64,000 bases of DNA from Arthrobacter sp. YN (GTDB lineage Bacteria; Actinomycetota; Actinomycetes; Actinomycetales; Micrococcaceae). The notes beneath the pieces are model-generated. The model ran no database searches, was not told where the DNA came from, and saw only the letters and a program-made list of their open reading frames with translations. Location: positions 2,108,001-2,172,000 of the forward strand of contig NZ_CP022436.1 in assembly GCF_002224285.1 (NCBI RefSeq), read 5' to 3'. This document shows positions 25,627 to 58,227 of this stretch, in pieces. The position numbers and the translations under genes are program-made. Numbering within the stretch: the first letter of the stretch is position 1; each line of letters begins with the position of its first letter.

Positions 25627-25708
25627 GCCCGAGTGGCGGAATTGGCAGACGCGCCGCACTCAAAATGCGGTATCGAAAGGTGTGTGGGTTCGAGTCCCAC
25701 CTCGGGCA
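25627..25708 (+). tRNA. tRNA-Leu (anticodon CAA)
   Basis: The seven-base acceptor stem GCCCGAG pairs with CTCGGGC, with discriminator A. The anticodon loop CTCAAAA on stem CCGCA/TGCGG gives anticodon CAA, reading UUG. A long variable arm and the T arm GTGGGTTCGAGTCCCAC are present, and CCA is not encoded. The integrase of the mobile element lies 87 bases downstream, so the 3' end of this gene is the probable attachment site (attL core about 25690-25708). Confidence 0.95.
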
Positions 25709-25723
25709 CTGTGTTGTCGCAGG

Positions 25724-41613: not shown

Positions 41614-41720
41614 ATGTCCTGGCAGATAGTTCGGATCCAGATGGATCATCCGAACATAACACGTATGCGTGGCCCGTGAACAAATCTCCTCCCGTGGCGC
41701 TCGGACAACTAGTTCGGTAA
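41610..41720 (+). pseudogene. Truncated transfer gene at the cargo boundary
   Basis: A 36-codon frame begins with an ATG overlapping the previous stop (ATGA), exactly like the other joins in this module, and ends at TAA 41718. Downstream the frame +1 continues coding-like (FGNPINAFYIGAA), suggesting a frameshifted or truncated gene and not a genuine 36-residue protein. The transfer genes stop here and resume 16 kb further on. Confidence 0.4.
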
Positions 41721-42418
41721 TCCAATCAACGCCTTCTACATCGGTGCCGCTGTGACGACCAGATGGACTACGAACGGCGGGGTGCGATTGAACTGCACCC
41801 CGGAAGACGGACCCTCGCTGTTCCTGTGCATCTGCTCATTGCACTCTCCGTCGGATATCCCTACGGTCCCGCCCGGTGGAAGATCGTCCGCTGTTCCAAT
41901 TCCAGGAAGAGGAACATATTCATTTGTACTTGGCCGCGTGACCCTGCAGCTCCAGTTTCACTGTCTGCACCATGCGTAGAGACTCATCGTGCAGACGATT
42001 TGCAGCCTTCCCAGACCGTCATCAAGTATTGATGGTGACGGTTAAGAAGTCAGTACCTCTCGACAGAAGGGCTAATAATCCAACCTCGGTCAACGGACTT
42101 GCGGACGATGTCGAGCCTGGAGACAGCGCCAAGCCATTCTAAAAAATGTTGGAAAGGTATCGCTTGACAGTGCCTTCAGCGGTAGAGAGAGCGGATCCAA
42201 TTTGGAGATTCGATTTTGCACCAGATGCAAGTGTCAGTATCTCTACCTCGCGGAGACAGCGGATTGTCATCCGCTGTCGGAGAATTGATTTGACGAACGA
42301 TCCTTCGCGGTACGCCTGGCTAAAGATTATCTAGTGCGAGACTTTGCCACTATGCGCTCGCTAACGGAGTACAACCTTGCGCCGGCACCCTAGTTCCCTT
42401 AGATCTGATGGAGAGATG
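41721..42418 (+). other. Region without a confident gene at the left edge of the cargo
   Basis: Overlapping open frames at 41752-41979 and 41763-42032 may be leftovers of the truncated transfer gene. A 62-codon frame at 42146-42334 has no ribosome site and no recognisable domain. I see no repeat or recombinase marking the junction. Confidence 0.4.
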
Positions 42419-45400: not shown

Positions 45401-45901
45401 CAGTTTGTGGCGATGAAGTCGGTTGACGTGCGCAATGCGCAACGATTGGGCGAACTTTGGGATGAGCGCGTCGCGAATGTTCGCGCAAATCCGGAGGAAA
45501 GGGCTGAACTCGGCGACTTCTACTGGTTCGTAAAGTGTAGAGAGTACCCAGTCGAATGGTGGTTGCCACGGTTAGTCGAAGCAGCTGAACTTCATGGCCG
45601 CCTCAACAGTCATGGGATGATCGGCGAAGTTTTGGCCCAAGCCGCGCCGGTGAATCCTCGCACGTCGCTCGACGCGCTCCGACTACTACTGCCGGAGGGG
45701 GTTGACGCAGAGGCAAGGAGCTACGATCTCACGGAGTATGCAGCCCCGGCCGTAATAGCAGCGGGTTTCGCGTCAGACGATGAGCAACTCAGAACAGATT
45801 CGCGGCAGCTGATGCATGCATTGGGCGCCCGCGGATACCTGGATCTTGAGCAACGAGTGCTGGAAATCGTTGAAACCCCGGGAAAGCCTCAGGAAAAGTA
45901 G
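42419..45901 (+). CDS. Large helical protein of unknown function in defense cargo
   Basis: A protein of about 1161 residues from ATG 42419 (GGAG five bases upstream; ATG 42416 adjacent). No P-loop, nuclease or membrane motif is visible. The sequence is almost wholly helical with Leu- and Ala-rich repeating segments (for example IGEIGLRTITPWLEDCL-like, RSTSNSWVRRAVFDIGARI, LLRRIVLFATAEALLLLHAERGD), suggestive of HEAT-like repeats, and a more polar linker near residues 570-650 (ERSSEPRERWQ...SSGSWRGPTSPSSQTE). It lies in cargo with QatABCD and DUF4297-HerA, so an antiphage role is suspected from company only. A weak hairpin follows. Confidence 0.75.
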   Translation: MVVQDRANLDDRQQQLYDALDERSPALAGTYRAAIRMLGTPAVAGEERARVSLIGNAMREVMNALPSVIGETTGRLKGRSASALARELSDALALSSDLDLRQDLDYIPVPRAVAIAIDQVVQTVVLETKQVRDDAAALLAEGSSSDHPAVGQWIEAREFFVRWTHLERPPRDNGHVPTDVEILRNIRVVEDLVAVRTAGFFDTRRLLDELLAEINRADKPPTSEQVQYALRQIPTLQLRRVFFEGNNSPLWLQPLAAAGVFSTPPEPTPGDDGYTREPYWPEIEFLTRMAGLVPDQVVGVFLALRSTSNSWVRRAVFDIGARIPAEHAARLVPMILEWGVDGLGWRTDPRSQGALTKNLLDNGETKAGLKLANLLFRPRAEGQQGKVEVAFEDYWYAEELPKVAQSLGEIGLRTITPWLEDCLRLNESVTEDFDVSYLRRAVIGRKDHSLPSVEHALIDTVRDLATASIRRAPDRTISMLSRTPILLLRRIVLFATAEALLLLHAERGDTVAIISAGKDLISDPLSSQETCWLELAHLIKAVADIAPDELAELALLIGAVPRVSTTAVGRYPRREDDVQTSPDERSSEPRERWQHRLLAAIGVPSLPPELQQRLSELDAEHGVIESPLAPDLSSGSWRGPTSPSSQTELSAMDPRELVAHLESWRIGDDWRGPTHEGQGRELTTLVSTNPFALAGMSDLVERLRPTYLRAVLTGWEAAIKAGFHPEWSQLLDVTHAVLDRAKPSVFAPEGHDFEDDRDYGHAKHAAIGLLEEVTKKRSNLSVPNLVLEQVGAVLIAAAEDDGAWSEYASRLPSNPADPFAISLTSRWPVSVRGLVNLLSHGPDSSWFHGALVALERELGRPDRHGAIHAVVGESLVKLHSHAPDWLTANLARLFGGDEGISTCQQVALTTALAAHHSHKATFELLREPLSAALRLEEPIAVGWKGRSEPLELIGQWIVESFVWGDIDINDTLLRDFFELVPPATRGAAVANIAWQFVAMKSVDVRNAQRLGELWDERVANVRANPEERAELGDFYWFVKCREYPVEWWLPRLVEAAELHGRLNSHGMIGEVLAQAAPVNPRTSLDALRLLLPEGVDAEARSYDLTEYAAPAVIAAGFASDDEQLRTDSRQLMHALGARGYLDLEQRVLEIVETPGKPQEK

Positions 45902-45933
45902 TCGGAAAACTCCCTACGCCCATGCTTGCCAAC

Positions 45934-45954
45934 GTTGGCATGCCGGCTGCCAAC
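45934..45954 (+). terminator. Weak hairpin after the large helical-protein gene
   Basis: Seven-base arms GTTGGCA and TGCCAAC with a seven-base loop, 33 bases after the stop. No U tract. The rest of 45902-46186 shows nothing recognisable. Confidence 0.35.
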
Positions 45955-46186
45955 ACATCCACGGTGGCACTAGTTTAGTGGCGGGGTCCGCTCAGACGAG
46001 GCACGAGGCCAGCAATTCCGGTCGGCCTAAACTACAAACCGGACCGATCGACCTAGCCTGGCACAGCCAAGTGCAACGGCCACAGCCTAGGCACGGGATA
46101 GTGTTCGTTGCCTGAGCCCATGATCGCTGCCCTCGCAGAATCCGTTACGATGCGACAACGCATACTCGTTCGAGAGAAGGAATCTA

Positions 46187-46891
46187 GTGGCAGCCAGTCG
46201 TCCTGTCGTGTTTGGGATCTATAGCTTTCCGTCTGAAACTAAGGCGAAGGAAGAGTGCAAGCGGATTCGCGACAAGTACATTCCAGACGGTCGCTTGACT
46301 GACCCCGCGGATGACGTCTTTTTCCGAGCCTTGGTCGATGAACACCGTCATCGGGAAGAGAAAGTAGGTGCAGGAATCGAGTATTTTCAAGTCCGCCTAA
46401 ACGGTTCCTTGAGGGCCAGGACGGGCAACTACGGCGTCTGGATCAAGCAGTATGGAGTAGACGACCTGATCGATTTTGGCTATGGCGGAGTCATAAGCCG
46501 ACTCGCTAATGCAGGAGGTGCTCGCCAAGAACATGCTCGGATAGACCGGGCCCTGCGACTTGCGATCCGTCCAATAACGGACGAGTTCTTGTCGACATGG
46601 CGTGAATCGGGCCGGCCGCTCGTATCTTGTCTCAGCGGTGAGACGATGCGCTCAGGCGACGCCATCGACGTCGTTCATGACGTGCCGCGCTGGGGCGAAC
46701 TTGTGCGTGGGTTTATCGCCAGATTCGCCGAGCTCTCCGCCATCGAAACACGGCGACTCGATCAGTCGTTAGGGGAGATAATCGTGAGTGATGAGATTCG
46801 GTCGTCCTGGATTCAGTACCACCGGGATCATGCTGTTCTGGGTCTGTCCACTCCACAAGAGAATGCTGCCAGGTCGAGAGAATTAGCTTGA
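46187..46891 (+). CDS. DCL/DUF3223-family protein
   Basis: A 234-residue protein. The N-terminal 95 residues follow the DUF3223/DCL pattern: a PSETKAKEECKRIRDKY helix, then DVFFRALVDEHRHREEKVGAGIEYFQVRLN and a final strand FGYGGVIS. The C-terminal part is helical and ends SWIQYHRDHAVLGLSTPQENAA, as in bacterial stand-alone members. The molecular function of the family is not established. The plant DCL proteins act in chloroplast rRNA maturation, so nucleic-acid binding is a fair guess. The start codon is probably GTG at 46187, with GAGAAGGA upstream. It could pair with the large protein before it. Confidence 0.7.
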   Translation: MAASRPVVFGIYSFPSETKAKEECKRIRDKYIPDGRLTDPADDVFFRALVDEHRHREEKVGAGIEYFQVRLNGSLRARTGNYGVWIKQYGVDDLIDFGYGGVISRLANAGGARQEHARIDRALRLAIRPITDEFLSTWRESGRPLVSCLSGETMRSGDAIDVVHDVPRWGELVRGFIARFAELSAIETRRLDQSLGEIIVSDEIRSSWIQYHRDHAVLGLSTPQENAARSRELA

Positions 46892-46990
46892 ACCAGAGCA
46901 TGGCAGCTTGGATACTGAATGCGGAACTTACGTCGCTCCGAGACGGCTGGTGCTGCCACTTTGGGCGGTGCCAGCCGTAGTTGGGAAGGC

Positions 46991-47359
46991 TTACCACGGG
47001 GGATGATGGGTATCGGGATCGCTACTACGAGGCTGCCCCCAACAATCCGCCAGGCACTCCATGAAGTCATAGCGGGCAAAGCCGTATAACTGCTGCCGTA
47101 AGTAGAGGTCCGGCTCTAGATCCGCCTTCTCGATGGCGGCGGAATACTGTTCCTGGCACCCGCTGCGGCATTCTCGGCCCGGTGGCCATGGTTCAGGCGG
47201 TGCAAGCTCAGGTGGGAGTTTGTCGAACCAATCCTCGCGATCGAAAAAGTCCCTCAAAGGATCTCCGGGGAATCTCGCGAGAAACGGGCCGACTAGGAGG
47301 CGGAGGTTCTTGCGACTCTTTCCGAGGCGCTGCCGTTCATGTTCGAATCGCGCAGGCAA
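46991..47359 (-). CDS. Hypothetical protein
   Basis: A 122-codon minus-strand frame with acidic and aromatic segments (PLRDFFDREDWFDKLP, LYGFARYDFMECLADCWG) and four cysteines in a spacing that could bind metal. Its 5' end overlaps the decayed small gene at 47349, so the start may have been altered by the junction. No family recognised. A competing plus-strand frame (47133-47408) is Arg/Ser-rich low-quality sequence. Confidence 0.45.
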   Translation of the reverse strand: MPARFEHERQRLGKSRKNLRLLVGPFLARFPGDPLRDFFDREDWFDKLPPELAPPEPWPPGRECRSGCQEQYSAAIEKADLEPDLYLRQQLYGFARYDFMECLADCWGQPRSSDPDTHHPPW

Positions 47360-47576
47360 GGCCTACGCCGAGCTGATGCGTCGAATCGATGCCGGTCAAC
47401 CCGTCTAAGCACGAGTCAAAGCAACCGCAGGATGTAACGGCAAGGTGGTGACAGTTCGTAGCTTGGTGAAGCCGCAGATTGTGGATGACTACGTGGCCAC
47501 CGTCATGCAGATCGCAGACCGGCTAGCGATAAGCAATTCTGAGTCGAATGGCAAGCCTCGGAGTGAGGATTCCTGA
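47349..47576 (+). pseudogene. Remnant of the small gene family found intact at 53412
   Basis: Reads RAGKAYAELMRRIDAGQPV, a TAA at 47406, then in the same frame NGKVVTVRSLVKPQIVDDYVATVM to a TGA at 47574. This matches the C-terminal half of the intact protein at 53412-53816 (RAGKAYAALMRNMG, VLTVRSIVKPNIDVDHFVDVLM). The N-terminal half is missing. It stands 202 bases upstream of qatA, as the intact copy stands 246 bases upstream of the DUF4297 gene. The remaining 47577-47777 shows no gene. Confidence 0.75.
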
Positions 47577-47777
47577 ACGAGCTAACCATCGGGTAGATGC
47601 CCCACTCGGCGCGGCTCGTTCCCTCAGTGTCCTAGTGGTGATGCATGATTAAGTCGTGTGTCGCTGAGAACATTGACGGCAAGGTCGCCCTGGCTAATAG
47701 TCTAGGGTAGCATTCAACGGAATTTAAGTATTGGGGGATTCTGGCAGGCTGCAATAGCTTATTCAGAAATACTGTTT

Positions 47778-49628
47778 ATGGCACAAACTGAAAATCAAAT
47801 CTTGCCTCTGTGGTCGGACGAACCTGCATCCACAGATCTACTATCGTTTCAAGCAATCGCGGAAACTGTCGCCGACGCCATTTTCGACGACGGACTCAAT
47901 CCTATCGCCTTGGGTATTTCTGGATCATGGGGTAGTGGTAAGACTACGGTCCTTAATCTTGTCGAAAAACGGCTGAGTGGCTGGACGGACGATGACCAGA
48001 AGATCATTGTTGTTCGCGCAGACCCGTGGCGTTATGACCCGGCCGTGGGTCCCAAGGAAAGTCTGATTACAGAGGTCCTAGGGGCGCTGGCTGAGGAGTG
48101 TCGCACGGACGATCCTGTGAACGATGCCGCCAGCAACACTCTCAAGAAACTAGCGAAACGCGTAAATTGGTCTAAGGCGATCAAGATGGCGGCTCGTACT
48201 GGTATTACGATGCAACTCCCAAGCCTTGATGACATTTTCGACTTGGTAAGCGATGACAAGGAGTCATTGGAAGGCGAGAAGGGTCTTGCTGCATTCCGGA
48301 AAGAGTTTTCGGATTTTCTAGGAAGCCCAGCCCTTGCGCATGTCGAGCAGGTCGTCGTCCTCGTTGACGACCTTGATCGATGTCTTCCGGAAACGGTTGT
48401 TGAAACCCTTGAGGCGATTCGATTGTTCTTGTCTGTAGATGGGATGTCTTTCGTCATCGCGGCCGACGAGGAGCGCGTAGCGGAAGCAATTCAGCAGAAG
48501 CTCCAGACTCCGAAGGCTGCAACGGAGGAAGAGAGCGTTGCGAGTCTGTACCTCCATAAGATCGTTCAGACCACGATCCCTCTCCCGGCCCTAAGCAACT
48601 TCGATACTAAGGCGTATCTTTTCTTATTGCTTGCCAAATCAAAGCTTGGCGACGTTGCGTACGCCCAGCTGGTCATTTCCTGCAACGAGCTCCGTTTCGG
48701 GGCTGGAAGTCTAGATGATCTTGCTATGCCCGAAGGATCTGATCTCGCTCTCGAAGCCGCAACGGCCTCCCGACTAACCCCGGTCCTTTACGAGAGGTTT
48801 AAAGGCAACCCGCGCCGTATTAAGCGTTTCATGAATGACCTATATGTGCGTCAGGCCGTTGCTTCTCGTCGGGGAATCAGTCTCGCCTCCGATGCTATTG
48901 CTAAGTTAATGGTGCTTGAGCGGTTGTTTGAAAGTGACTTCATGACGGTTCTTGATTGGCTGGCTAGCGGCAATCTGAGGCCTCAGTTAATGGCTTTGGA
49001 CAAGATCACAGCATCCGACGAGCCTGCCCCGATCGCCAAGGTCGTTGATGGCAAGAGGCCTAAACTCAACGTCAAGACGGAGCTGCCTCCGCAAGAAGAC
49101 TCATTAGGTGGGTTCTCGGCGACTATGGTTCGGTGGGCTAAGCTGCCTCCAGAGCTCGACGCTGGCGAGGTTTCTGGCTACCTCACTCTTGCCGCTGCAT
49201 TCAAGGGGCGCCAACTAATTGACGAGTCGCTGCCCCAGCAATTGCGTGACATCGCGGCAGCTCTAACGTCTGGTTCTCAACTCGAGAGGACATCCGTTAA
49301 TGATGCCGAGCTCGCGGCATTGGCCCGGGGTGATGTCGATACACTCATCCAGTACTTGGGCAGGAAGATGCAGGACGACCCGGCTGTTCAGCTTGGGGCG
49401 GTCAACGGCATTTTGACTCTTTGCAGTACCCACGAAGACCTAGTTGAGGTTGCCACGCGCGCCTTGCTGAAATTGCCAGCGCAAGAAGTTAGCTTGCCGA
49501 CAGTGCTGCTGTTCAATTCTGGAGGAGCTGCGCAGTTTGTTGAAGTTCTCGGAGCTTGGAAGGCGGGAACTGAAAATAAGCCGGTCATCAAGGCCTTGGA
49601 TTCAGTTCTGGACGCGGGAGCCAAGTAG
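47778..49628 (+). CDS. qatA: QatA, KAP-family P-loop NTPase of the Qat antiphage system
   Basis: A 616-residue ATPase of the KAP family: Walker A GSWGSGKT (residues 49-56), Walker B VVVLVDDLDRC (near 192) and the sensor-side segment FVIAADEERVAEAI. Conserved KGNPRRIKRFMNDLY lies at about 340. There are no obvious transmembrane helices between the Walker motifs, unlike some KAP proteins. QatA, QatB, QatC and QatD together were shown to protect against phages in heterologous hosts, though the mechanism is unresolved. It is followed two bases later by qatB. Confidence 0.92.
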   Translation: MAQTENQILPLWSDEPASTDLLSFQAIAETVADAIFDDGLNPIALGISGSWGSGKTTVLNLVEKRLSGWTDDDQKIIVVRADPWRYDPAVGPKESLITEVLGALAEECRTDDPVNDAASNTLKKLAKRVNWSKAIKMAARTGITMQLPSLDDIFDLVSDDKESLEGEKGLAAFRKEFSDFLGSPALAHVEQVVVLVDDLDRCLPETVVETLEAIRLFLSVDGMSFVIAADEERVAEAIQQKLQTPKAATEEESVASLYLHKIVQTTIPLPALSNFDTKAYLFLLLAKSKLGDVAYAQLVISCNELRFGAGSLDDLAMPEGSDLALEAATASRLTPVLYERFKGNPRRIKRFMNDLYVRQAVASRRGISLASDAIAKLMVLERLFESDFMTVLDWLASGNLRPQLMALDKITASDEPAPIAKVVDGKRPKLNVKTELPPQEDSLGGFSATMVRWAKLPPELDAGEVSGYLTLAAAFKGRQLIDESLPQQLRDIAAALTSGSQLERTSVNDAELAALARGDVDTLIQYLGRKMQDDPAVQLGAVNGILTLCSTHEDLVEVATRALLKLPAQEVSLPTVLLFNSGGAAQFVEVLGAWKAGTENKPVIKALDSVLDAGAK

Positions 49629-49630
49629 AT

Positions 49631-50464
49631 ATGGGTACAAGTGGCTCATTCAAGGGTAGTGGCGGCGCCGACGCAGGTAGCTTAAGGGATTCGATTTCGA
49701 GCTGGCTTGATGATGCGCCCGCTGCAGTCGGATCGCAGGAACCAAATCGGGCGAACCCGGATGTGCAGTCTCCCGGTGAGCAAGGGAATGTTCACCCTGC
49801 TCATGCAGGGTTGGACCCGGCAAGTCTGGCCCCGATGATCCGGCTGTGGCGCCGAGCCGGGGGTGGAGACGGTCCTGGAAGTGGTGGTGGCGGAGGTGGT
49901 GGCGTCGGCACGAAGGGTGGACGATCGTCAGGTGGCCCCAAGCGGACCGTTGGTCGTGTTGCAGGTCCGGCAGGTCGAGCAAGTTCCATTGCCCGAGCCT
50001 ATGCGACTGGCGATAGGGCAACTCTCGAGCGCTCAGGTCTTAACTACGACGAGCTTCGTGCGCTGAACGATCCGCTGGAAGTGGGCAAACGAATTGCGGA
50101 TGCCGCCTTCGAGACACAGCCCGACGGCTCCATAGAAGACAGCGAAGCCCGAATAATCGTCTCGGAACTCGTTGCTTGGATGATGGACGTACCCGAGGAC
50201 ACCCCCCGTCAACCCGACGAGATTGTTCGACACACAATCGAACAGATGATTATCCAAGGAACGATCAACGAGGTTGGCTCAACAATCCGTGGGGAGAAAG
50301 ACAGGGCCAAGCGTCGCGCTGTTGAGGCGGAGATTCGGAGTGCTGCCGCTGTCATGGCTAGCCAAGCCACCCTTAGTGCTTCAGGCGCGAGCGCCGCGGA
50401 AATATCAGCTGCTATTGAGAGCAACGTTACGCTGCTTAGCAGTTTTTATACGGACACGAAATGA
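49631..50464 (+). CDS. qatB: QatB, Qat antiphage system component
   Basis: A 277-residue protein with the typical QatB layout. A glycine/serine-rich N-terminus beginning MGTSGSFKGSGG is followed by a low-complexity GGGGGGG stretch near residues 83-91, then a helical C-terminal half (ARAYATGDRATLERSGLNYDELRAL, IIVSELVAWMMDVPEDT). The invariant G-S/T-S-x-S-like N-terminus may be a substrate of QatC, whose QueC fold can modify protein termini in related systems; this is inference. The stop overlaps the qatC ATG by four bases. Confidence 0.88.
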   Translation: MGTSGSFKGSGGADAGSLRDSISSWLDDAPAAVGSQEPNRANPDVQSPGEQGNVHPAHAGLDPASLAPMIRLWRRAGGGDGPGSGGGGGGGVGTKGGRSSGGPKRTVGRVAGPAGRASSIARAYATGDRATLERSGLNYDELRALNDPLEVGKRIADAAFETQPDGSIEDSEARIIVSELVAWMMDVPEDTPRQPDEIVRHTIEQMIIQGTINEVGSTIRGEKDRAKRRAVEAEIRSAAAVMASQATLSASGASAAEISAAIESNVTLLSSFYTDTK

Positions 50465-51750
50465 CCCGAATCGCACTTTCTCTTGATCGTGTCGAGGCCG
50501 AAAAGCTAGAAGGCTATGACGAGGTCTTCCTATGGGATGGGAGTGCCACAGATAGTTTCAAGTCCAAGCTCCATCCCGGCCTCGCATCGCTCGGAAGTGT
50601 CGGTGGGGTCAATGCTGACTTCGTTCGGATAGCTTTGGCCGTGTATGCCTCGGACCACTCTGTGCTTCGTGAGTCAAAAGGGTCCGATTGGAACCAACGC
50701 TCGTTTGAGCTAACCGTTCCGGTCAGCGTTCCAGCGAAATGGGCCGCTCAAGCTGATTCGCTGACAGGCCTGTTGGGTTATCTAACCGGTGACGCTTGGT
50801 CGTTCACCTTTATACAGTCAACCCTTCCCGATGCTCCGCCCGTGATGGTGGAGGACACGTCACTGAGAACAGTCCTCTTTAGTGGAGGTGCCGACTCGGC
50901 CACAGGGGCGTTGGTTTCGGCCCATTCCTTGGGTCCTGATGAGACCCACGCCCTCCTTTCGCATTCAAGTTCCGGCGCGACGGGTTCCGCTCAGCAGCTC
51001 GTAACAGCGGCCCTCAATGGGCACTTCGGTTCCAAGAACTCGGCCCACCACCGAATTTTTCTCGGCAGGGCGAAGAAAAGGCTTGATAGGACAAAATTTC
51101 CTAAAGAACCATCAAGTCGTTCGCGTTCACTGCTTTTCCTTGCCCTAGGCCTGGCGGTTGCGGAGCAGAGCGGCGGCCCTCTTTGGATTCCTGAGAATGG
51201 TTTTGCCTCTTTGAATCCGCCCCTTGGGCCAGAGCGGAGAGGCGCACTCTCTACGCGAACAACGCAACCATGGTTCCTCTGGAGGGTCAGTTCATTGCTT
51301 GCGGACATGGAAGGGCATGGTTCGATCATCAACCCCTTCGAGCACATGACAAAAGGTGAAATGTTCCGACGCGTTGAGGGCATCCTGGGAGCCGATGACG
51401 CTTCAGAGTATCTGAGTACGACCAACTCTTGTTCTCATACCGACCAGCAGTACGTTGGGGTTTCAAGTGGCACGCATTGTGGGGTTTGCTTTGGATGCAT
51501 CGTCCGCCGCGCCTCGTTTAACGCATCGGGCGTGGCCGATAAGACATGGTACTTAAGTAACGAATCTAGTGAGAAGATTCTGGACTACGTAGAGAAGAAG
51601 TCTATTATGACTGCATTGAGAGACTTTGTAGAACTGGGTGTCGACGAGGCGGTCATCATGGCAATGCCACTCCCGCCCGGCTACCTTACCCGCACAGCAC
51701 TGGAGCTGTCGCAAAAAGGCACGGGCGAACTTGAGGACTTCCTGGCGTGA
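50461..51750 (+). CDS. qatC: QatC, QueC-like protein of the Qat antiphage system
   Basis: A 429-residue protein combining an N-terminal extension of about 130 residues with a QueC-like ATP-pyrophosphatase domain. The PP-loop is SGGADSA (residues about 141-147). The QueC zinc cysteines are in NSCSHTD...THCGVCFGCIVRRASF. QueC makes preQ0 from carboxydeazaguanine, whereas defense-associated homologues appear to act on proteins or nucleic acids. The target here is unknown. It overlaps both neighbours by four bases (ATGA and GTGA). Confidence 0.92.
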   Translation: MTRIALSLDRVEAEKLEGYDEVFLWDGSATDSFKSKLHPGLASLGSVGGVNADFVRIALAVYASDHSVLRESKGSDWNQRSFELTVPVSVPAKWAAQADSLTGLLGYLTGDAWSFTFIQSTLPDAPPVMVEDTSLRTVLFSGGADSATGALVSAHSLGPDETHALLSHSSSGATGSAQQLVTAALNGHFGSKNSAHHRIFLGRAKKRLDRTKFPKEPSSRSRSLLFLALGLAVAEQSGGPLWIPENGFASLNPPLGPERRGALSTRTTQPWFLWRVSSLLADMEGHGSIINPFEHMTKGEMFRRVEGILGADDASEYLSTTNSCSHTDQQYVGVSSGTHCGVCFGCIVRRASFNASGVADKTWYLSNESSEKILDYVEKKSIMTALRDFVELGVDEAVIMAMPLPPGYLTRTALELSQKGTGELEDFLA

Positions 51751-52526
51751 ACACAATGCCACCATTGGACACCCATGCACATGTCGATCCTGGAGTCTCT
51801 TCACGAGAGCTGGAAGATCTCGGTGCGGTGGTGTTGATAGCAACTCGATCTTTGGCTGATTTCAAACTTGTCCAAGAACGGCAAGACCTAGTTAGTGTAT
51901 GGGGTGTCGGATGCCATCCCTCTCTTGTCGGTGTCCAGAAGGCATTCATCGAAGAAGATTTCCGCGAAGCTCTCAAGAAGACCCCATTCATCGCTGAAGT
52001 TGGATTGGATGGCTCTTCTCGCGTTCCAGTGGGATCGCAAATCGGGGTACTCAAGACAATCCTGTCTGCAACTCATAAGCAACCTCGCATAGTCTCGCTA
52101 CATAGCTACAAGGCAACTGCTGAGCTGGTGAACGTTTTGAGGCAGGAGGGCGGGCAGCCGGGACGGATCTTGCATTGGTGGCTAGGCACCGATGACGAGA
52201 CAGCTGAGATGTTGCAACTGGGCTGTTATTTCTCGATCAACTATTCCATGCTTCGAGCTCCCGGTGCATGGACTCAAGTTCCGCTAGACAGGATTCTTCT
52301 GGAAACAGACCATCCCTCCGGTGATCGCTTTTCGAGCCAGCCACGCCAGCCCGGTAGTGTGAGTGACGTTGAGAAGCTACTGGCAAAGAGGTTTCAGCTG
52401 ACCCCTCACCAAATAAGAGTCCAGTGCTGGAAAAACTTCGCGGCCGTCGTTGAATCGACGCGCACTGACACTCTCATGCCTCGCCCGGTTCAGAGGATGA
52501 TTGCTGCAGCACGAGCACGAATCTAG
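51747..52526 (+). CDS. qatD: QatD, TatD-like nuclease of the Qat antiphage system
   Basis: A 259-residue TatD-type metal-dependent hydrolase. The metal ligands are visible in LDTHAHVDPG, AEVGLDGSS, SLHSYKA, RILHWWLG and LLETDHPSGDR. The GTG start at 51747 overlaps the qatC stop; an in-frame ATG lies at 51756. Gene order A-B-C-D with almost no spacers matches described Qat operons, so the system appears complete. It ends two bases before a convergent broken HTH gene. Confidence 0.92.
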   Translation: MNTMPPLDTHAHVDPGVSSRELEDLGAVVLIATRSLADFKLVQERQDLVSVWGVGCHPSLVGVQKAFIEEDFREALKKTPFIAEVGLDGSSRVPVGSQIGVLKTILSATHKQPRIVSLHSYKATAELVNVLRQEGGQPGRILHWWLGTDDETAEMLQLGCYFSINYSMLRAPGAWTQVPLDRILLETDHPSGDRFSSQPRQPGSVSDVEKLLAKRFQLTPHQIRVQCWKNFAAVVESTRTDTLMPRPVQRMIAAARARI

Positions 52527-52527
52527 C

Positions 52528-52843
52528 TTAGAGATCCTTGGCAACCTGTTGGGCGTCGAGCAGATGCTCATACGAACCCCGCATTTCCACACCGGCCTCG
52601 ATCAGCCGTGATCGTACCGTGTGAGCGGTCACGCCCATGCGTTTGCCGATAGTGCCCAGTGAGTCGCCTTGTTCGTAGAGTCTGACTGCTTCCTTGATTT
52701 GCTGCTCATCCAGGCCACATCCAGGCCAGCGTTGCGTAGTGAGACGGCTCCCGGCGTAGGTGCTTACTCACGGTCTCTCGGCTGATCCCGTACTTAACAG
52801 CAAGCTCCTTTACCCGCATGCCGGACTGGTAGTCCGCCTCCAG
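52528..52843 (-). pseudogene. Broken copy of the HTH gene at 57088
   Basis: On the minus strand the sequence reads EADYQSGMRVKELAVKYGISRETVSKHLRR, then shifts frame. GLDEQQIKEAVRLYEQGDSLGTIGKRMGVTAHTVRSRLIEAG continues to the TAA at 52528. The shift is explained by an 11-base tandem duplication of CATCCAGGCCA at 52707-52728. The position of the start codon of the intact copy is CTG here (52841-52843). It was a 100-residue two-HTH protein. Confidence 0.8.
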
Positions 52844-52995
52844 TGTCTTGGACTGCTCAGCTTTGAGTTGCGAAAAGCGGCGGGGGTGGCCGATCCTGCG
52901 GTCCTGTCGCTGGTCTGGCCTGGATCTTCTCGATCAGGGCCCAAAGCTCCAGATATGCCGCACCTTGATTCGAATAAGCTGGATGGACGCCCACC
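52562..52995. repeat. Diverged direct repeat, copy 1 (partner 57119-57543)
   Basis: Same orientation and gene content as the partner. Shared runs include AGATGCTCATACG, GTTTGCCGAT, GGTCTCTCGGCTG, GATTCGAATAAGCT and GACGCCCACC at the right end. The homology extends about 150 bases beyond the HTH start. The repeats flank 53.0-57.1 kb. Confidence 0.75.
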
Positions 52996-53411
52996 AGGAA
53001 TTATTGAGTTTCATTTACAATAAGAATTGAAGGAGGTCAACATGTACCGGTGCTGACTTTTTGTTGTACAAACTCGGTGCCGAAATCATTTTCGCGACTC
53101 GCGGCCGCAACGCCCACCTCTGCTAAATGGTTCGAAGTACGTTAGGTATCTTGCGCACCGGTACGATATGTCGGGTCGGAAGGTCAGCCCTGTTGGCGCT
53201 GAACGATATGTACCGGTGCCGCAAATCGAGGGCTTCGAAAATCACTATGAAAATGGCGATCGGATGGGCGACAGGACGGCCGATCGGACGCCCAAACCGG
53301 CCGCCATCCCAGCCAGTCGGCTGCACCGGTACATAGCCGGGATCTTGCTCATGCTCGCAAATACGCGCAGTCCGTGTCATGCTACGGCCCGGAAAGTTGA
53401 GTTGTCATGCG
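52844..53411 (+). other. Non-coding region with four copies of a 10-base motif
   Basis: GTACCGGTGC occurs at 53044-53053 (+), 53155-53164 (-), 53210-53219 (+) and 53323-53332 (-), alternating in orientation. Three copies extend to ATGTACCGGTGC. Small open frames here (53127-53336, 53168-53443) show no domain. The left third is the end of the direct repeat. Confidence 0.6.
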
Positions 53412-53816
53412 ATGCCACGAGTTACCTACGAGACCTACCGTAACCGCCATCTGCAGCTACGTAAGCTCTGGGGGGAGAACCAGGGTGTCTTTGCTGCGGT
53501 AGATCCCATGGAGCAGTGGGATCTCCATGAGTACTTCCTCTGCACCGATCGGCTAACCGAAGCAACCTTGCGCTCCCATTGCGATGGAATCAAAGACACT
53601 GACACCTCACTGCCGCAGCGTGCCGGCAAGGCCTACGCCGCACTAATGCGCAACATGGGCGCCGCTGTTCCTACGACTCAGCTAATCCAGCCACGAGGAA
53701 CTGGCCGCAAACAAAATGTACTGACCGTCCGCAGCATCGTGAAACCGAACATTGATGTTGATCATTTTGTGGATGTACTGATGAGCCTTGGTGCCCGTGT
53801 TGGTCCAAAGGACTGA
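53412..53816 (+). CDS. Small hypothetical protein upstream of DUF4297-HerA
   Basis: 134 residues from ATG 53412; ATG 53379 is in frame. It has an N-terminal helical part (YETYRNRHLQLRKLWGENQGVFAAVDPMEQWDLHEYF), then RAGKAYAALMRNMG and LTVRSIVKPNIDVDHFVDVLMSL. A truncated relative lies upstream of qatA at 47349. No domain recognised. The repeated placement ahead of defense systems suggests a regulator, an accessory factor or a passenger of cassette exchange. The 245 bases to the DUF4297 gene show no further gene. Confidence 0.65.
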   Translation: MPRVTYETYRNRHLQLRKLWGENQGVFAAVDPMEQWDLHEYFLCTDRLTEATLRSHCDGIKDTDTSLPQRAGKAYAALMRNMGAAVPTTQLIQPRGTGRKQNVLTVRSIVKPNIDVDHFVDVLMSLGARVGPKD

Positions 53817-54061
53817 CACTCTTGCATGTGAAAATGAAGCCTGGTCGTGCACATGATGCGCCTCATGGCTGCTATCCACTCGTCATTCTTGATGCCAGCG
53901 GGTTTTCTTCGTGAACGTAGATGTGCTTAATGGTGTGCAGAAAAAGTTGTCCTGAGGAAGGACATAACAAGGGATTAAGTTGAAATGACAGAAGCTAGTT
54001 CAATTTGGTGCGAACATAAGTTCGAAATCGATCGGCCAAATCTTGGAGTGGCATCTTCCTA

Positions 54062-55297
54062 ATGGCGAATGACCAACTTCCGGATCGATCTGCCCAAGCT
54101 TCAATTCAGGGCTACCAATATCAGTTTGTACTTTCAATCATAGAGATTCTACGCGCGTCGGAAGATTCAATTGTCACGATTGAAGGACTTGAAGATATTG
54201 ATGTGTTTTCTCCAGATGACGACGTGGCAGTTCAGTGTAAGTATCTTGAGAAGGCAAAGTACAGCTCTACCGTACTGAGAAAGCCTATCTTGGCGATGCT
54301 GGCGGCGCATGCAGCGGGAAAACGAAATAACTTCGTGCTTCACGTCTACTTCGGTGACGGCACTGCCCCGGAACGACTGACCTTGGATGAGTTGAAGATC
54401 TGCCTGACCGAAAGAAAAAGAAAACCGGAACCCAAGACTGTCCTGCACTACGAGAGCTTCAATGATGCTGACCTAGAAGACTTTTGTGCTCGACTTGAAA
54501 TTCGTGCCGGTGAACGCTTCGCCACGCAAGAAGAGATGGCTAAAAAGGCCCTTGAGAAGGCTCTCAAGTGTTCGCGGGCTGATGTCGAGAGTCTACATTA
54601 CCCGAGTGCACTCGTTAAGATTCAGGAATTGGCAATGAACGTTCTGCAATCCGATCGGCGTACTTCCAGGCAGGAGTTTATTGACAGGCTGAACATCAAA
54701 ACCCAGTTATACACACGGTGGCATCGAGAGCTTGTGACGGTAGACAACTACCTAAAGGCTCTCTCTGTCAGGCTTCGCCAGTCGGGTGTCTTAGGGGCTC
54801 AGCGAAAGCGTGGCGTAATGATCGAGTTGGATGCAGTGGCCGCTCGCGGTGGCCTCGTCGATGCTCGGGAGTTCTTTCGTGTGTTGGCTCATGAGGGGTA
54901 CGGTATCTCTAAGCTCAACACAAGTAAGCCTTGGACCGTAATAGTTGAGACCAATGAAGAGAGCTACCTCGCTTTAAAACGCGCTTTGCTCGAAGAAGGC
55001 ATCATTTTCAATGATGGCTATGAGCATATACGATTTGATTCCGCGATTTTTGACCGGCCTCCAATTTTCAATACCAAACCGCGGTCTAGCACAATCTCAT
55101 CTACTTCATATGACATTCGCGTTATGAGCAGAGCCTCGTTCGATGAATTCATTCGATCGGGTTATTCGCTAGATGTGCTCATTTGCGCTCAGGTAGATGA
55201 TCATGGTGAGGCTCTGAGTAAGGCTTCCTCCAAAGAGGTCCATGTGCCGGCAGTCAGTTTCGAACAATTAATCAAAGTAATGGGCGTGCCAAAATGA
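54062..55297 (+). CDS. DUF4297/Cap4-like nuclease of a DUF4297-HerA antiphage pair
   Basis: A 411-residue protein. The N-terminal 230 residues look like the DUF4297 restriction-like nuclease: GYQYQFVLSIIEILR, then DIDVFSPDDDVAVQCKYLE with the D...QxK-type active site, and FVLHVYFG. The C-terminal part (about 230-411) is a separate mixed domain (VDAREFFRVLAHEGYGI, YDIRVMSRASFDEFIRSGYSLDVLICAQ). In described DUF4297-HerA systems the nuclease and a HerA hexamer assemble into a large complex that degrades DNA during phage infection. Its TGA overlaps the HerA ATG. This gene pair is distinctly AT-richer than its neighbours, suggesting separate origin. Confidence 0.82.
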   Translation: MANDQLPDRSAQASIQGYQYQFVLSIIEILRASEDSIVTIEGLEDIDVFSPDDDVAVQCKYLEKAKYSSTVLRKPILAMLAAHAAGKRNNFVLHVYFGDGTAPERLTLDELKICLTERKRKPEPKTVLHYESFNDADLEDFCARLEIRAGERFATQEEMAKKALEKALKCSRADVESLHYPSALVKIQELAMNVLQSDRRTSRQEFIDRLNIKTQLYTRWHRELVTVDNYLKALSVRLRQSGVLGAQRKRGVMIELDAVAARGGLVDAREFFRVLAHEGYGISKLNTSKPWTVIVETNEESYLALKRALLEEGIIFNDGYEHIRFDSAIFDRPPIFNTKPRSSTISSTSYDIRVMSRASFDEFIRSGYSLDVLICAQVDDHGEALSKASSKEVHVPAVSFEQLIKVMGVPK

Positions 55298-57054
55298 GCG
55301 ACATAACATCAATGGCGAGAGTAATTGCCGTCGGTCCGGACCTTATAGAAATAGAAGTCACGTCTACGGACGAGTATGAGCAGCTGGAAGACAAACTGGA
55401 GATTGGTAGCTACCTCAAGGTCTCTGACGAGAATGGTTCCAGTGTTGTTGCCCTTGTGCAGAGTTTTCGTATCAGGGATATCGTCGCCAACGAACAGGGC
55501 ACCGAGATTACCACACCAAAGTTCATCCTCTCGACGCAGCCGGTTGGCCGACTGGAGAACGGCAAGTTTCGACGCGGTGGAAAGCAGATCACAATTCCAC
55601 CTAAGAGAGTTGAGATAGCTACGAGTGACTTGCTGAGAGAGATTTATGATACGACACCGGAAGCGAAGAAGTTCAGCTTCGGACATCTTGTGCAAGATCC
55701 AAACGTAGCCGTATCACTCGACGGTGACAAATTTTTCGGAAAACACATCGGAGTGGTGGGTTCTACCGGTTCCGGCAAGTCCTCGACCGTTGCCGCAATC
55801 CTCCAGGAAGGTGTAAAAGCCTCGAACGGCACGAGTAAGCCGGGTGCCCTAAACAATTCTCATGTAATCATCTTCGATCTTCACGGCGAGTATTCAGCAG
55901 CATTTCCAGATGCTACGGTCATCGGGGTCGACGATATCAAACTGCCATACTGGCTGATGAATTCAGAAGAGCTGGAAGAGATGTTCATTGAAAGCAATGA
56001 GCAGAACTCACATAATCAGGTGTCGCAGTTTCGCCGAGCCGTAATTGAAAACAAGGAACGCCACAACAGCGGCTCGACTGGAAAGATTTCCTATGACTCG
56101 CCTGTGTACTTTAGTCTTGCAGAAACGGTCAATTATCTGACACACCTCAATAGTGAGGTGGTCAGTAAGTTGCCAGATGAAAACCTTCCTAAGTTTGCGA
56201 ATGGCGACTTGGTCCATAATCGTGCCGATCACTACTTCGAGCCAGTCAAAGGCTTTGTTGAGCAGTCCCAGTCGAAAACTGACAAGGCGAGTAGTGGCCC
56301 CTTCAACGGGGAGTTTAATAGATTCTTGATGCGTCTTGAAGGTCGAAGAGGCGACAAGCGACTGGATTTTCTGCTGAATCCAATGAAAACTGATGACACG
56401 CCGTACCAAACCGAGGACCTGCCTGATCTACTTCGTCAGTTCATGGGTTACGGGAGTCCGAATAGCAACGTCACGATCATTGACCTTAGTGGTATACCGT
56501 TCGAGGTATTGAGCGTTGTTGTTTCATTGATTACGAGGCTCATCTTTACGTTTAATTTTCACTTCAAGAAATATAGGACTCGAGGCGAGGCAGAGCTCCC
56601 GTATCTCCTTGTTTATGAGGAGGCCCACAACTATATTCCTCAAAGCGAGGGTGCTAAGTACGGATCGGTGAAGAGGGCCATCGAGCGTATCGCCAAGGAA
56701 GGTCGAAAGTACGGCATCTCCTTGATGATCGTAAGCCAGCGTCCGTCGGAAATATCAGAAACCGTGTTCTCTCAGTGCAATAACTTTGTTGCGATGAGGC
56801 TAACCAACCCGGCTGACCAGCGCTACGTCAAGCGACTCCTGCCCGACAGCCTCAGCGCGATAACCGACTCACTGCCGTCCCTCGAGCGGCAGGAGGCCAT
56901 CGTAATCGGCGACTCCATCGTTGTACCATCTCTCATCAAGGTTACTGACATCAAAGATCTGCCGGATTCACATGACATCGACTTCCACACGGAGTGGAAG
57001 AAGGAGTGGTTAGACGTAGGGATGAAGGAGATCGTAGAAACGTGGCAAGGCTAG
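55294..57054 (+). CDS. herA: HerA-type ATPase partner of the DUF4297 nuclease
   Basis: A 586-residue FtsK/HerA-fold ATPase. An N-terminal HAS-barrel-like region (residues 1-110) is followed by Walker A GSTGSGKS (156-163), HVIIFDLHGEYSAAFPDA, Walker B LLVYEEAHNYIPQ (near 438), and the arginine-finger region LMIVSQRPSEISETVFSQCNNFVAMRLTNP. HerA hexamers translocate DNA and in defense pairs scaffold a nuclease or Sir2 effector. It overlaps the DUF4297 gene by four bases and ends 34 bases before the convergent HTH gene. Confidence 0.92.
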   Translation: MSDITSMARVIAVGPDLIEIEVTSTDEYEQLEDKLEIGSYLKVSDENGSSVVALVQSFRIRDIVANEQGTEITTPKFILSTQPVGRLENGKFRRGGKQITIPPKRVEIATSDLLREIYDTTPEAKKFSFGHLVQDPNVAVSLDGDKFFGKHIGVVGSTGSGKSSTVAAILQEGVKASNGTSKPGALNNSHVIIFDLHGEYSAAFPDATVIGVDDIKLPYWLMNSEELEEMFIESNEQNSHNQVSQFRRAVIENKERHNSGSTGKISYDSPVYFSLAETVNYLTHLNSEVVSKLPDENLPKFANGDLVHNRADHYFEPVKGFVEQSQSKTDKASSGPFNGEFNRFLMRLEGRRGDKRLDFLLNPMKTDDTPYQTEDLPDLLRQFMGYGSPNSNVTIIDLSGIPFEVLSVVVSLITRLIFTFNFHFKKYRTRGEAELPYLLVYEEAHNYIPQSEGAKYGSVKRAIERIAKEGRKYGISLMIVSQRPSEISETVFSQCNNFVAMRLTNPADQRYVKRLLPDSLSAITDSLPSLERQEAIVIGDSIVVPSLIKVTDIKDLPDSHDIDFHTEWKKEWLDVGMKEIVETWQG

Positions 57055-57087
57055 AGGGCTAGGACGGACACGTTCCGGAGTCTCTGA

Positions 57088-57390
57088 TCATGGCCTAGCC
57101 TGGCGGCTGGCCGGCATAAGATGCTCATACGTACTCCGCATCTCCACGCCCCTCTCAACCAAACGTGACCGCACCGTATGAGCAGTCACCTCCATGCGTT
57201 TGCCGATTGTAGCCAGCAAGGCACCTTGTTTATAGAGCCTCACTGCTTCCTTGATCTGCTGTTCATCCAGACCAACCTTGCGTGGGGTGACTGCCTGCCG
57301 GCGTAGATGTTTATTTACGGTCTCTCGGCTGGTCCTGTACTTAACGGCTAGTTCCTTGACTCGCATACCAGCTTGATAGTCCGCTGCCAT
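57088..57390 (-). CDS. Small double-HTH DNA-binding protein
   Basis: 100 residues from ATG 57390. It has two helix-turn-helix units in tandem: YQAGMRVKELAVKYRTSRETVNKHLRR and YKQGALLATIGKRMEVTAHTVRSRLVERG, joined by GLDEQQIKEAVR. The reading frame stays open about 160 bases upstream (with LGGRPTSLFESRY) but offers no ATG, GTG or TTG start, so it may be the C-terminal remnant of a serine-recombinase-like protein. A broken copy sits after the Qat operon. It is convergent with herA. Confidence 0.7.
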   Translation of the reverse strand: MAADYQAGMRVKELAVKYRTSRETVNKHLRRQAVTPRKVGLDEQQIKEAVRLYKQGALLATIGKRMEVTAHTVRSRLVERGVEMRSTYEHLMPASRQARP

Positions 57391-57543
57391 GGCTTCGGTT
57401 TTGTTGGCCTTGAGTTGCGGGAAGCGGCGGGTGAGCGGCCGATCCTTCGGTCTTTTGGGGCCCGGGCTTGGATCTTGTCGTTCAGGGCTCGAAGCTCCAG
57501 ATGCGCGGTACCGTGATTCGAATAAGCTTGTAGGACGCCCACC
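57119..57543. repeat. Diverged direct repeat, copy 2 (partner 52562-52995)
   Basis: Holds the intact HTH gene and about 150 bases upstream of it, ending at GACGCCCACC as copy 1 does. Overall identity is moderate by eye, so the duplication is not recent or the copies arrived separately. Confidence 0.75.
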
Positions 57544-57927
57544 TAAGCGGAACTATTCGAATCGCTGCCTGCAGTGTCGGCCAGGGCTTGTTGTATCCTC
57601 CGCTGGTGAGGTGTAACCCCGGGCCGCGAGCTCGGATTATGTACGGGGTCTAGTCGTGACACGGCCGTCGTTACCCAGTCAGCCTCGGCGGCGGCCCGGG
57701 GATCAGGAAACACGGCTCGCAATCGAGATGGATGGACCATTTCCCGAATCTTATCGAGGCTGATACCTCGCGGACGACAGTCATGGCTGCTCCTGCCCTC
57801 ATCGATCACTGACTGACTCACAACCAGCCTGACGTAGAGGGCATCATGTCGTATCCGCCCACCCCATCCATGAAGTCGTGAGCCCAAGCAGCTCATTCCA
57901 TAGGAAAACGACTGGATGGAGCACCTG
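57391..57927 (+). other. Right edge of the cargo, no confident gene
   Basis: The left part is the remainder of the direct repeat. A minus-strand frame ending at 57543 (…LDKIREMVHPSRLRAVFPD…QALADTAG) is coding-like for about 90 codons but has no clear start or ribosome site. The transfer module resumes at its right. Confidence 0.4.
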
Positions 57928-58215
57928 ATGGTACTGGCAGCGGTGGATCCCGGGATCACACCAAACGCGAACTTTCCTTTTCTTGAGTCCCTCAAGCAGA
58001 TCGGCGGTGGCATCCTCGTGGGCGCCTTCATCGTCATTGCGATCGTAGCGATCATCGGAGCAGCGATGCTGTTGGCCGGCAAGCTGAGTCAATCCTCGAG
58101 ACTGGCCTCAGGCGGTGGGGTGATCCTGCTGTGGACAGGCCCGGTCGCGGCAATCCTTGGCGGGATCAACGGCTACATACTCTGGTCTCAGACGGCCTTT
58201 CCGTTGGGCTTCTAG
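57928..58215 (+). CDS. Small two-helix membrane protein, probable TrbC/VirB2-like
   Basis: 95 residues from ATG 57928, which has GGAG six bases upstream; ATG 57916 is in frame. Two hydrophobic helices (GGGILVGAFIVIAIVAIIGAAMLLAG and GGGVILLWTGPVAAILGGINGYI) are separated by a short KLSQSSR loop. Size, topology and position directly before a VirB6-like gene fit the pilin-like small subunit of actinobacterial type IV secretion modules. Sequence alone does not prove homology to VirB2. Confidence 0.65.
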   Translation: MVLAAVDPGITPNANFPFLESLKQIGGGILVGAFIVIAIVAIIGAAMLLAGKLSQSSRLASGGGVILLWTGPVAAILGGINGYILWSQTAFPLGF

Positions 58216-58227
58216 CCGCTCGCGATC

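What the first reader, a model, noticed from the sequence alone, without database searches (positions are those of the whole stretch)
47349..57543. Two antiphage systems in parallel, identically framed cassettes
QatABCD and DUF4297-HerA are each preceded, about 200-250 bases upstream, by a member of the same small-gene family (decayed at 47349, intact at 53412). Each is followed immediately by a convergent copy of the same double-HTH gene (broken at 52528, intact at 57088) within diverged direct repeats. This looks like a slot in which defense modules are exchanged or stacked by recombination in shared flanking genes. The Qat cassette shows decay of both flanks while the internal operon is intact, suggesting it is the older or superseded unit.
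Basis: partly seen in the sequence, partly recalled or inferred. Interest (0 to 1): 0.88.

Follow-up and report, generated by a model that had tools for sequence, protein, structure and literature searches.

The report
HTH cap genes on defence modules
Two anti-phage gene sets in a soil bacterium each end in the same small DNA-binding gene, which in related bacteria sits at the edge of mobile DNA islands inserted beside tRNA genes and often loaded with different anti-phage systems, so it may work as a cap that lets immune modules be stacked and swapped.

Summary
The two cassettes are real. QatABCD and DUF4297-HerA each have a member of one small-gene family upstream and a convergent copy of one double-HTH gene directly downstream (HTH copies 76% identical over 438 bp). 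The "intact" HTH copy is frameshifted near its start. The frame idea is partly right: outside the window 25 of 40 tested convergent 3' neighbours of this HTH family match defence models, against 2 of 20 on the other side. Empty sites show what the HTH gene is: the right-terminal gene of islands inserted at the 3' end of tRNA-Pro (left end exact in five genomes, both ends in two). Its start codon overlaps the attachment site. Some islands keep a large serine recombinase at the tRNA end, some only its last codons, and some are tandem arrays with an HTH gene per module. In the window two such modules lie inside a separate, sharply bounded ICE cargo slot; neither gene was found in 20 other ICE regions, so the frame came with the modules. 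Most likely: att-bearing modules stacked by site-specific accretion, now partly decayed. The small gene is optional; the HTH protein's role is inferred.

The parts
40459..41613 (+). NlpC/P60-type gene, left ICE flank of the cargo slot (name by eye, no call)
   Evidence: conserved in 15 of 15 measured ICEs; DNA homology stops at 41585-41619
41614..57843 (.). variable cargo slot of the ICE (16.2 kb here; 2.9-10.8 kb in 15 relatives)
47334..47531 (+). remnant (C-terminal part, one stop) of the small gene
   Evidence: HMM hit; 80% over 64 aa to P0006
47778..49628 (+). QatA (KAP ATPase)
   Evidence: PADLOC QatA 6.5e-79, KAP_NTPase 1.6e-44
49631..50464 (+). QatB (by position and by match to the G523 Qat operon)
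   Evidence: no PADLOC hit; 45% over 163 aa to L157
50461..51750 (+). QatC (QueC-like)
   Evidence: PADLOC 1.2e-70
51747..52526 (+). QatD (TatD nuclease)
   Evidence: PADLOC 1e-31, TatD 1.7e-28
52552..52994 (-). HTH copy 1, right cap of the Qat module, broken over three frames
   Evidence: HMM pieces
52969..52995 (.). right-end arm TTCGAATA (52969-52976) and core CGCCCACC (52988-52995) inside the HTH-1 start
52996..53293 (+). left-end leader (type 2) of the second module with hairpin and T run
   Evidence: 67% over 299 bp with the same junction in MI7-26; alignment A4
53412..53816 (+). small gene, intact (134 aa, starts MPRVT; no Pfam or PADLOC match)
54062..55297 (+). DUF4297 effector gene (weak Cap4 nuclease match)
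   Evidence: PADLOC 2e-52; Cap4_nuclease 0.0011, below the Pfam cut-off
55294..57054 (+). HerA helicase
   Evidence: PADLOC 5.4e-197
57088..57542 (-). HTH copy 2, right cap of the DUF4297-HerA module; last 100 codons open, N-terminus in another frame
57517..57561 (.). attP-like site: TTCGAATA (57517-57524), core CGCCCACC (57536-57543), TATTCGAA (57554-57561)
   Evidence: TTCGAATA on either strand occurs 4 times in 39 kb, 0.59 expected from base composition
57844..58215 (+). right ICE flank: leader ORF and VirB2-like gene (name by eye)
   Evidence: homology starts at 57829-57868 in 19 of 19 relatives with this gene

Best explanation
The double-HTH gene is the right-hand cap of a family of integrative islands, and the two window cassettes are two such capped modules stacked inside an ICE. 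SHOWN: in five genomes of the genus the islands begin exactly at the CCA end of a tRNA-Pro gene and their last gene is the HTH gene. Where both ends align cleanly (G069, G041) the right end falls at the HTH start codon, with a 6-bp core (CGACCA) at both ends. G041 and G416 carry a full-length large serine recombinase at the tRNA end (G041 also a replication-relaxation and a coupling-type protein); G060 has one lacking its first 79 residues; G069 and G295 keep only its last 56 and 139 codons. Several islands are arrays in which more than one module ends in its own HTH gene and att core. Cargo beside the HTH gene is often an anti-phage system. The window junctions show the same arms and an analogous core (CGCCCACC), and the one at 57517-57561 is a complete arm-core-arm site. 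INFERRED: modules are added by serine-recombinase site-specific accretion at these att sites (in trans where the recombinase is lost), giving diverged direct repeats of the HTH gene. The window modules entered the ICE cargo slot this way or were carried in by it. The HTH protein probably binds the TTCGAATA/TATTCGAA arms and steers excision or controls the next module. Both window caps are now damaged, so these modules are probably fixed as cargo that moves with the ICE.
For: Empty-site comparison: left ends exact at tRNA-Pro in G069, G295, G041, G416 and G060; right end exact at the HTH start in G069 (against 1 of 6 empty sites) and G041 (2 of 5), each with 6-bp overlap; against the other empty sites the flank alignment resumes only some 70-300 bp further on. 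Serine recombinase by Pfam in G041 and G060; the G041 protein aligns over residues 1-623 in G416 (87%), 80-623 in G060 (88%), 485-623 in G295 (81%), 568-623 in G069 (82%) and, more distantly, 229-624 in G079 (34%). IME-type backbone genes in G041. Unique tRNAs on the cargo side of the HTH gene in 95 loci: 21 in the orientation expected for a 3'-end insertion, 1 against; on the other side 5 and 1. Cargo: 25 of 40 3' neighbours match PADLOC at 1e-3 and 23 of 40 at 1e-10, against 2 of 20 and 0 of 20 on the 5' side (Fisher 3.8e-6 at the stricter cut). Core plus a second-type left end at the inner junction in 5 of 5 arrays looked at: window, L023, L025, L108, L154. G523 carries QatABCD plus Gabija genes ending in an HTH gene. 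HTH dN/dS 0.08-0.26 in 15 pairs of the tRNA-Pro group and 0.20-0.53 in 6 pairs of the tRNA-Ala group, with dS mostly near or above 1.
Against: The window modules are not at a tRNA, and a search with the G041 recombinase found no relative in 41001-58500. The left end of the Qat module was not found. In G295, G416 and G060 there is 0.1-1.0 kb of extra sequence between the HTH start and the resumed core genome, so their right ends are not exact. Of 22 tRNA-HTH pairs tested in the loci, 15 share no 8-mer between tRNA end and HTH start, and the 7 that do share 8-24 nt have uncorrected p of 0.036-0.12. The cap is not exclusive to defence: photolyase (by eye), an ABC transporter (by eye) and prepilins also occur beside it, and 15 of 40 neighbours had no PADLOC match. 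Inner junctions of further arrays (L036, L050, L068, L085, L090, L155, L156) were not examined or lack the HTH start. The small gene has no fixed place relative to the cargo. No excision or binding was tested.
Confidence: 0.7

Rival explanations
1. Homology-frame slot: the small and HTH genes are passive flanking homology in which defence modules are exchanged by homologous recombination.
For: Same pair around different cargo in window, MI7-26, G079 and G515; G041 and G069 share left genes (HsdR-M48, 72%) and the HTH gene (69%) with different cargo between.
Against: Tandem HTH copies are mostly 76-79% alike; exact tRNA-end junctions and short cores point to site-specific recombination; the HTH gene mostly lacks the small partner.
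Confidence: 0.15
2. The HTH protein is a transcription regulator of the adjacent defence operon and its position is just operon architecture.
For: DNA-binding domains, close linkage, low dN/dS.
Against: It is convergent to the operon it sits with, while the 5' side, which a divergent regulator would control, gave 0 of 20 strong PADLOC hits; its start overlaps the island end.
Confidence: 0.12
3. The modules were captured by the ICE by unrelated means (transposition, illegitimate recombination) and the HTH genes are only relics of earlier tRNA islands.
For: Both window caps are broken and no recombinase of this type is in the slot; the ICE slot takes many cargos without HTH genes.
Against: The junction at 57517-57561 keeps both arms and the core at the spacing seen in tRNA islands; a second genome (G049) has an HTH module with the same core on the contig of its ICE.
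Confidence: 0.3

Closest known systems
SCC / Enterococcus cassette chromosome (passages of PMC6222049 seen)
   Same: Serine-recombinase islands with variable cargo, att sites with dyad symmetry, multiple attR sites in many elements
   Different: Site is a tRNA 3' end, one recombinase not a CcrA/CcrB pair, and a fixed HTH cap gene overlaps the att site
Integrative and mobilizable elements / actinobacterial ICEs (passages of PMC3218068 seen)
   Same: Recombinase, replication-relaxation and coupling-type genes in G041; tRNA-end insertion. PMC3218068 reports eight Mycobacterium elements with serine recombinases in a tRNA-Leu gene
   Different: The same passage calls serine-recombinase insertion into tRNA genes rare; short islands here carry only cargo, recombinase remnant and cap
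Island defence hotspots (passages of PMC12629846 on Pseudomonas seen)
   Same: Variable defence cargo between conserved conjugation genes, as in the window ICE slot
   Different: The window slot additionally holds modules with their own caps and att-like junctions
QatABCD and DUF4297-HerA defence systems (PADLOC models)
   Same: Gene content and order
   Different: Nothing notable in the core genes; the flanking genes are the new point

Membership tests
QatABCD | QatA ATPase, QatC QueC-like and QatD TatD genes in order | tested here: met
QatABCD | QatB gene between A and C | tested here: inconclusive
   right position and 45% to the G523 homologue, no PADLOC hit
DUF4297-HerA | DUF4297 gene followed by HerA | tested here: met
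HTH-capped tRNA island (the family proposed here) | insertion at a tRNA 3' end with the HTH gene at the far end | tested here: met
   G069 and G041 both ends, G295, G416 and G060 left end only
HTH-capped tRNA island (the family proposed here) | window modules lie at a tRNA with their own recombinase | tested here: not met
   they lie in an ICE slot; the only tRNA found in the window is tRNA-Leu at 25627; no relative of the G041 recombinase in 41001-58500
HTH-capped tRNA island (the family proposed here) | window junctions carry arms and core | tested here: met
   two right arms and cores, one complete arm-core-arm site
SCC/ECC cassette chromosome | CcrA/CcrB pair and rlmH site | tested here: not met
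   one recombinase and a tRNA-Pro site in the islands read
Integron cassette array | integron integrase and attC sites | not tested
   no integron model was run
IME | recombinase plus relaxase or relaxation and coupling genes | tested here: inconclusive
   G041 only: Resolvase/Recombinase, Replic_Relax 9.3e-37, TrwB-like coupling 1.6e-6; no relaxase named
Cap protein as recombination factor | HTH protein binds the arms or directs excision | not testable with these tools
   needs experiments

The most novel reading that the evidence does not exclude
A cassette system for bacterial immunity: each defence module carries a cap gene whose first codons are themselves half of a serine-recombinase attachment site, so modules can be added, stacked and exchanged in trans at tRNA ends and inside ICEs, and the cap protein is the factor that directs this. 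The cap would then be a sequence marker for undiscovered defence systems.
Probability: 0.35. Interest if true: 0.87.

Novelty: new variant of a known kind. Interest (0 to 1): 0.68.

Why it matters
How defence systems are assembled into islands is an open question, usually answered with 'hotspots'. Here there is a concrete, testable unit: a module with a tRNA-derived core, a cap gene that overlaps it, and tandem arrays with several caps. The HTH family was found in 67 of 396 sampled genomes of the order; where a convergent neighbour could be tested, 25 of 40 were defence-like, so the other 15 and the genes beside untested copies are candidates for new systems.

Tried and rejected
Rejected: that the small and HTH genes are part of the ICE backbone (not found in 20 ICE regions); that the CGCCCACC near 57857 is a conserved ICE core (not conserved across the ICEs); that the family lives on plasmids (no match in 72,556 records at E 1e-3 for the small protein and 1e-8 for the HTH protein) or phages (8 records at 30-36% identity). 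Led nowhere: Rfam on 40000-58500 (no match); looking for the left end of the Qat module; a systematic test for shared tRNA ends (7 of 22 pairs, none convincing alone). The 1174-aa gene at 42377 and the HamC-like gene at 46187 were not resolved. My ORF caller is crude (greedy longest ORF); some 3' neighbours look like spurious antisense ORFs, which lowers the defence fraction, and some of the 40 are near-duplicates from related genomes (L039/L043, L065/L086, L089/L091), so they are not fully independent.
Full report
What is in the window. The window is part of a one-contig 5.06 Mb chromosome of a relative of Arthrobacter: the named relatives of the two proteins are Arthrobacter, which is inference about the host. 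A tyrosine-type integrase gene follows tRNA-Leu (25627-25709) and conjugation genes fill the right end; their names are my reading of the sequences. QatABCD (47778-52526) and DUF4297-HerA (54062-57054) are supported by PADLOC and Pfam, QatB by position and homology only. The direct repeat that holds the HTH gene is 52562-52995 against 57119-57543 (76% over 438 bp). The small gene is intact at 53412 and present as a C-terminal remnant at 47334-47531, 80% identical over 64 aa to P0006. Contrary to the finding, the second HTH copy is damaged too: its conserved N-terminus lies in another frame.

The ICE slot is a separate thing. A conserved conjugation protein (59636-61126) found the same ICE type in 36 of 149 related genomes. 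I fetched 20 regions from these; one was cut to 1.6 kb by the contig end. In the 15 where both flanks were found, all cargo of this interval lies between the P60 gene and the VirB2-like gene. DNA homology with the window stops at 41585-41619 on the left (15 of 15) and starts at 57829-57868 on the right (19 of 19 with the VirB2-like gene). The slot is 2.9-10.8 kb in the relatives, 16.2 kb here, and by eye its content differs between the 15 ICEs. Neither the small gene nor the HTH gene was found in the 20 regions. So the flanking genes came with the modules.

Where the flanking genes occur. In the genus the small gene is in 6 of 206 genomes and in all 6 it lies beside an HTH gene. The HTH gene was found in 16 of 206 by alignment search, which missed two known copies (G069, G416). 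In the order sample the HTH gene is in 67 of 396 genomes at E 1e-6; in a phylum sample in 8 of 396 at 1e-10, own genome included, two of the eight within long open frames that may be other proteins. Same frame with other cargo: MI7-26 (small gene - 868-aa PDC-S06 ATPase - HTH), G515 (same cargo, 92% identical protein, flanks partly decayed) and G079. Small gene directly against the HTH gene: G041, G478, G416, and G225 (weak hit). G523 has QatABCD plus Gabija-type genes followed by an HTH gene, without a detected small gene.

Cargo test. One search found 105 HTH copies in 96 loci (the window being one locus). Outside the window, 42 copies with E up to 1e-10 had a convergent ORF of at least 150 aa within 300 bp of the 3' end; two of these were the small gene itself and were dropped. 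The other 40 were scanned with PADLOC: 25 of 40 match at 1e-3 and 23 of 40 at 1e-10, including type I restriction, CBASS cyclase and effector, IetS, GajB, LmuB, Ppl, PDC-S06, an Old/AriA-like ATPase and a PrimPol (TOTE type, recalled). The remaining copies were not tested. As control I scanned 20 5' neighbours, picked by hand from 28 eligible in the same loci (62 eligible in all, wider gap limit of 1000 bp): 2 of 20 at 1e-3 and 0 of 20 at 1e-10. Fisher p is 3.8e-6 at the stricter cut and 9e-5 at the looser. Not all cargo is defence: photolyase (2 of the 40, by eye), an ABC transporter (G060, by eye) and prepilins (G416) also occur.

The edge of an island. Using the flanking core genome as query in 61 genomes of the genus and reading empty sites, islands can be delimited. 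In G069 (10.6 kb) and G041 (27.5 kb) the left end is the CCA end of a tRNA-Pro gene and the right end is the HTH start, with 6 bp (CGACCA) shared; this exact right end shows against 1 of 6 and 2 of 5 empty sites, while against the others the flank alignment resumes later. G295, G416 and G060 have different islands at the same tRNA-Pro as G069, with exact left ends; between HTH start and resumed core homology there is 0.1-1.0 kb of extra sequence. The tRNA was named by ARAGORN in G060; the others were matched by sequence. G515 has tRNA-Ala copies on both sides of its island, which could be a duplication or two native genes. Among 95 non-window loci, unique tRNAs on the cargo side number 21 in the expected orientation and 1 against; on the other side 5 and 1. 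But of 22 tRNA-HTH pairs only 7 share 8 nt or more between tRNA end and HTH start, with uncorrected p of 0.036-0.12.

The recombinase. G041 carries a 624-aa large serine recombinase at the tRNA end (Resolvase, Recombinase and zinc-ribbon domains). It aligns over residues 1-623 in G416 and 80-623 in G060 (so the latter lacks its N-terminus). G295 keeps only residues 485-623 and G069 only 568-623 next to the tRNA, which shows that these recombinase-less islands derive from recombinase-bearing ones. A distant relative (34%, residues 229-624) lies in G079; none was found in the window slot, L023, L026 or the G515 island. G041 also has IrrE-like, methylase, replication-relaxation and coupling-type proteins.

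Att anatomy. At the right end the arm TTCGAATA or TTCGAGTA lies inside the first HTH codons, then the core, then at the left end of the element the arm TATTCGAA 9-10 nt after the core. The conserved HTH N-terminus is thus partly the reading of an attachment site. In the window arm and core are at 52969-52995 and 57517-57543, and at 57554-57561 the second arm follows at 10 nt, so 57517-57561 looks like a joined (attP-like) site. What follows it up to the ICE flank (57562-57843) was not identified. The 8-mer TTCGAATA on either strand occurs 4 times in 39 kb against 0.59 expected. The other junction (52996 on) has a second type of left end, with a hairpin and T run, shared with MI7-26 (67% over 299 bp) and more loosely with G041, G478 and G416. 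RNAalifold predicts 37 pairs, 14 with a kept change on both sides, but the covariation term is unfavourable (+2.2) and there are only five sequences, so this is weak.

Mechanism. The observations fit modules that end in an att half-site hidden in a cap gene, added one after another at the same site. This gives diverged direct repeats of the cap, as in the window, MI7-26, G041, G478 and G416 (inner junctions of seven further arrays were not examined or lack the HTH start). HTH dN/dS is low (0.08-0.26 in the tRNA-Pro group, with near-saturated dS) also between islands that have lost the recombinase, so the protein probably has a use of its own; binding the arms to steer excision is my first guess and local regulation the second. 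How the modules entered the ICE is not shown. G049 has an HTH module with the same core about 13 kb from its ICE conjugation gene, beside a TrwC-type relaxase gene; that it lies inside the ICE is inferred.

What is known. Listings of ten library searches showed no description of this cap gene in titles and abstract starts; this says nothing about papers outside the library. Passages of PMC3218068 state that serine-recombinase insertion into tRNA genes is rare, with eight Mycobacterium elements in tRNA-Leu as examples; passages of PMC6222049 describe serine-recombinase cassettes with several attR sites; passages of PMC12629846 describe island hotspots of defence. PMC6002521 (serine recombinase of an anti-phage island) was seen only as a listing with the start of its abstract. 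The kind is known; the fixed cap overlapping the att site and the module arrays appear to be new.

Noticed in passing
window 42377-46891: A 1174-aa protein with a weak Dsr1 match (4.4e-10) and a HamC2-like DUF3223 protein (2e-24) open the ICE slot; a protein with a weak Dsr1 match lies near an HTH gene in G511 (L156).
   Followed up: partly
window 28466-32578: A 1370-aa gene near the integrase end of the ICE looks like another nuclease-NTPase defence protein (by eye only).
   Followed up: no
window 52996-53215; L023, L025, L108, L154 junctions: The second-type left end begins with a palindrome (TGAGAATCATTCTCA in L025; degenerate in the window), which recalls metal-regulator boxes (Zur/Fur, recalled), followed by a hairpin and T run.
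   Followed up: partly
window 54062-57054 against L025 2161-5164: DUF4297 is only 40% identical to its G041 counterpart while HerA is 73%: the effector diverges much faster than the helicase.
   Followed up: no
L154 6598-9317: Five prepilin-like genes in a row between two HTH caps in G416 (by eye; Pfam N_methyl on the one tested).
   Followed up: no
L026 10107-10530: G049 has an HTH-capped module (OLD-like ATPase) with core CGCCCACC on the contig of its ICE, near a TrwC-type relaxase gene.
   Followed up: partly
HTH family: Best phage matches lie in two Burkholderia phages, in genes annotated as endonuclease or GIY-YIG homing endonuclease (36%).
   Followed up: no
window 46991-47359, minus strand: A 122-aa open frame between the HamC-like gene and the small-gene remnant; may be a real gene or what cut the small gene.
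   Followed up: no
window 57562-57843: About 280 bp between the attP-like site and the ICE flank match nothing identified here; they could be the remnant of a further module.
   Followed up: partly
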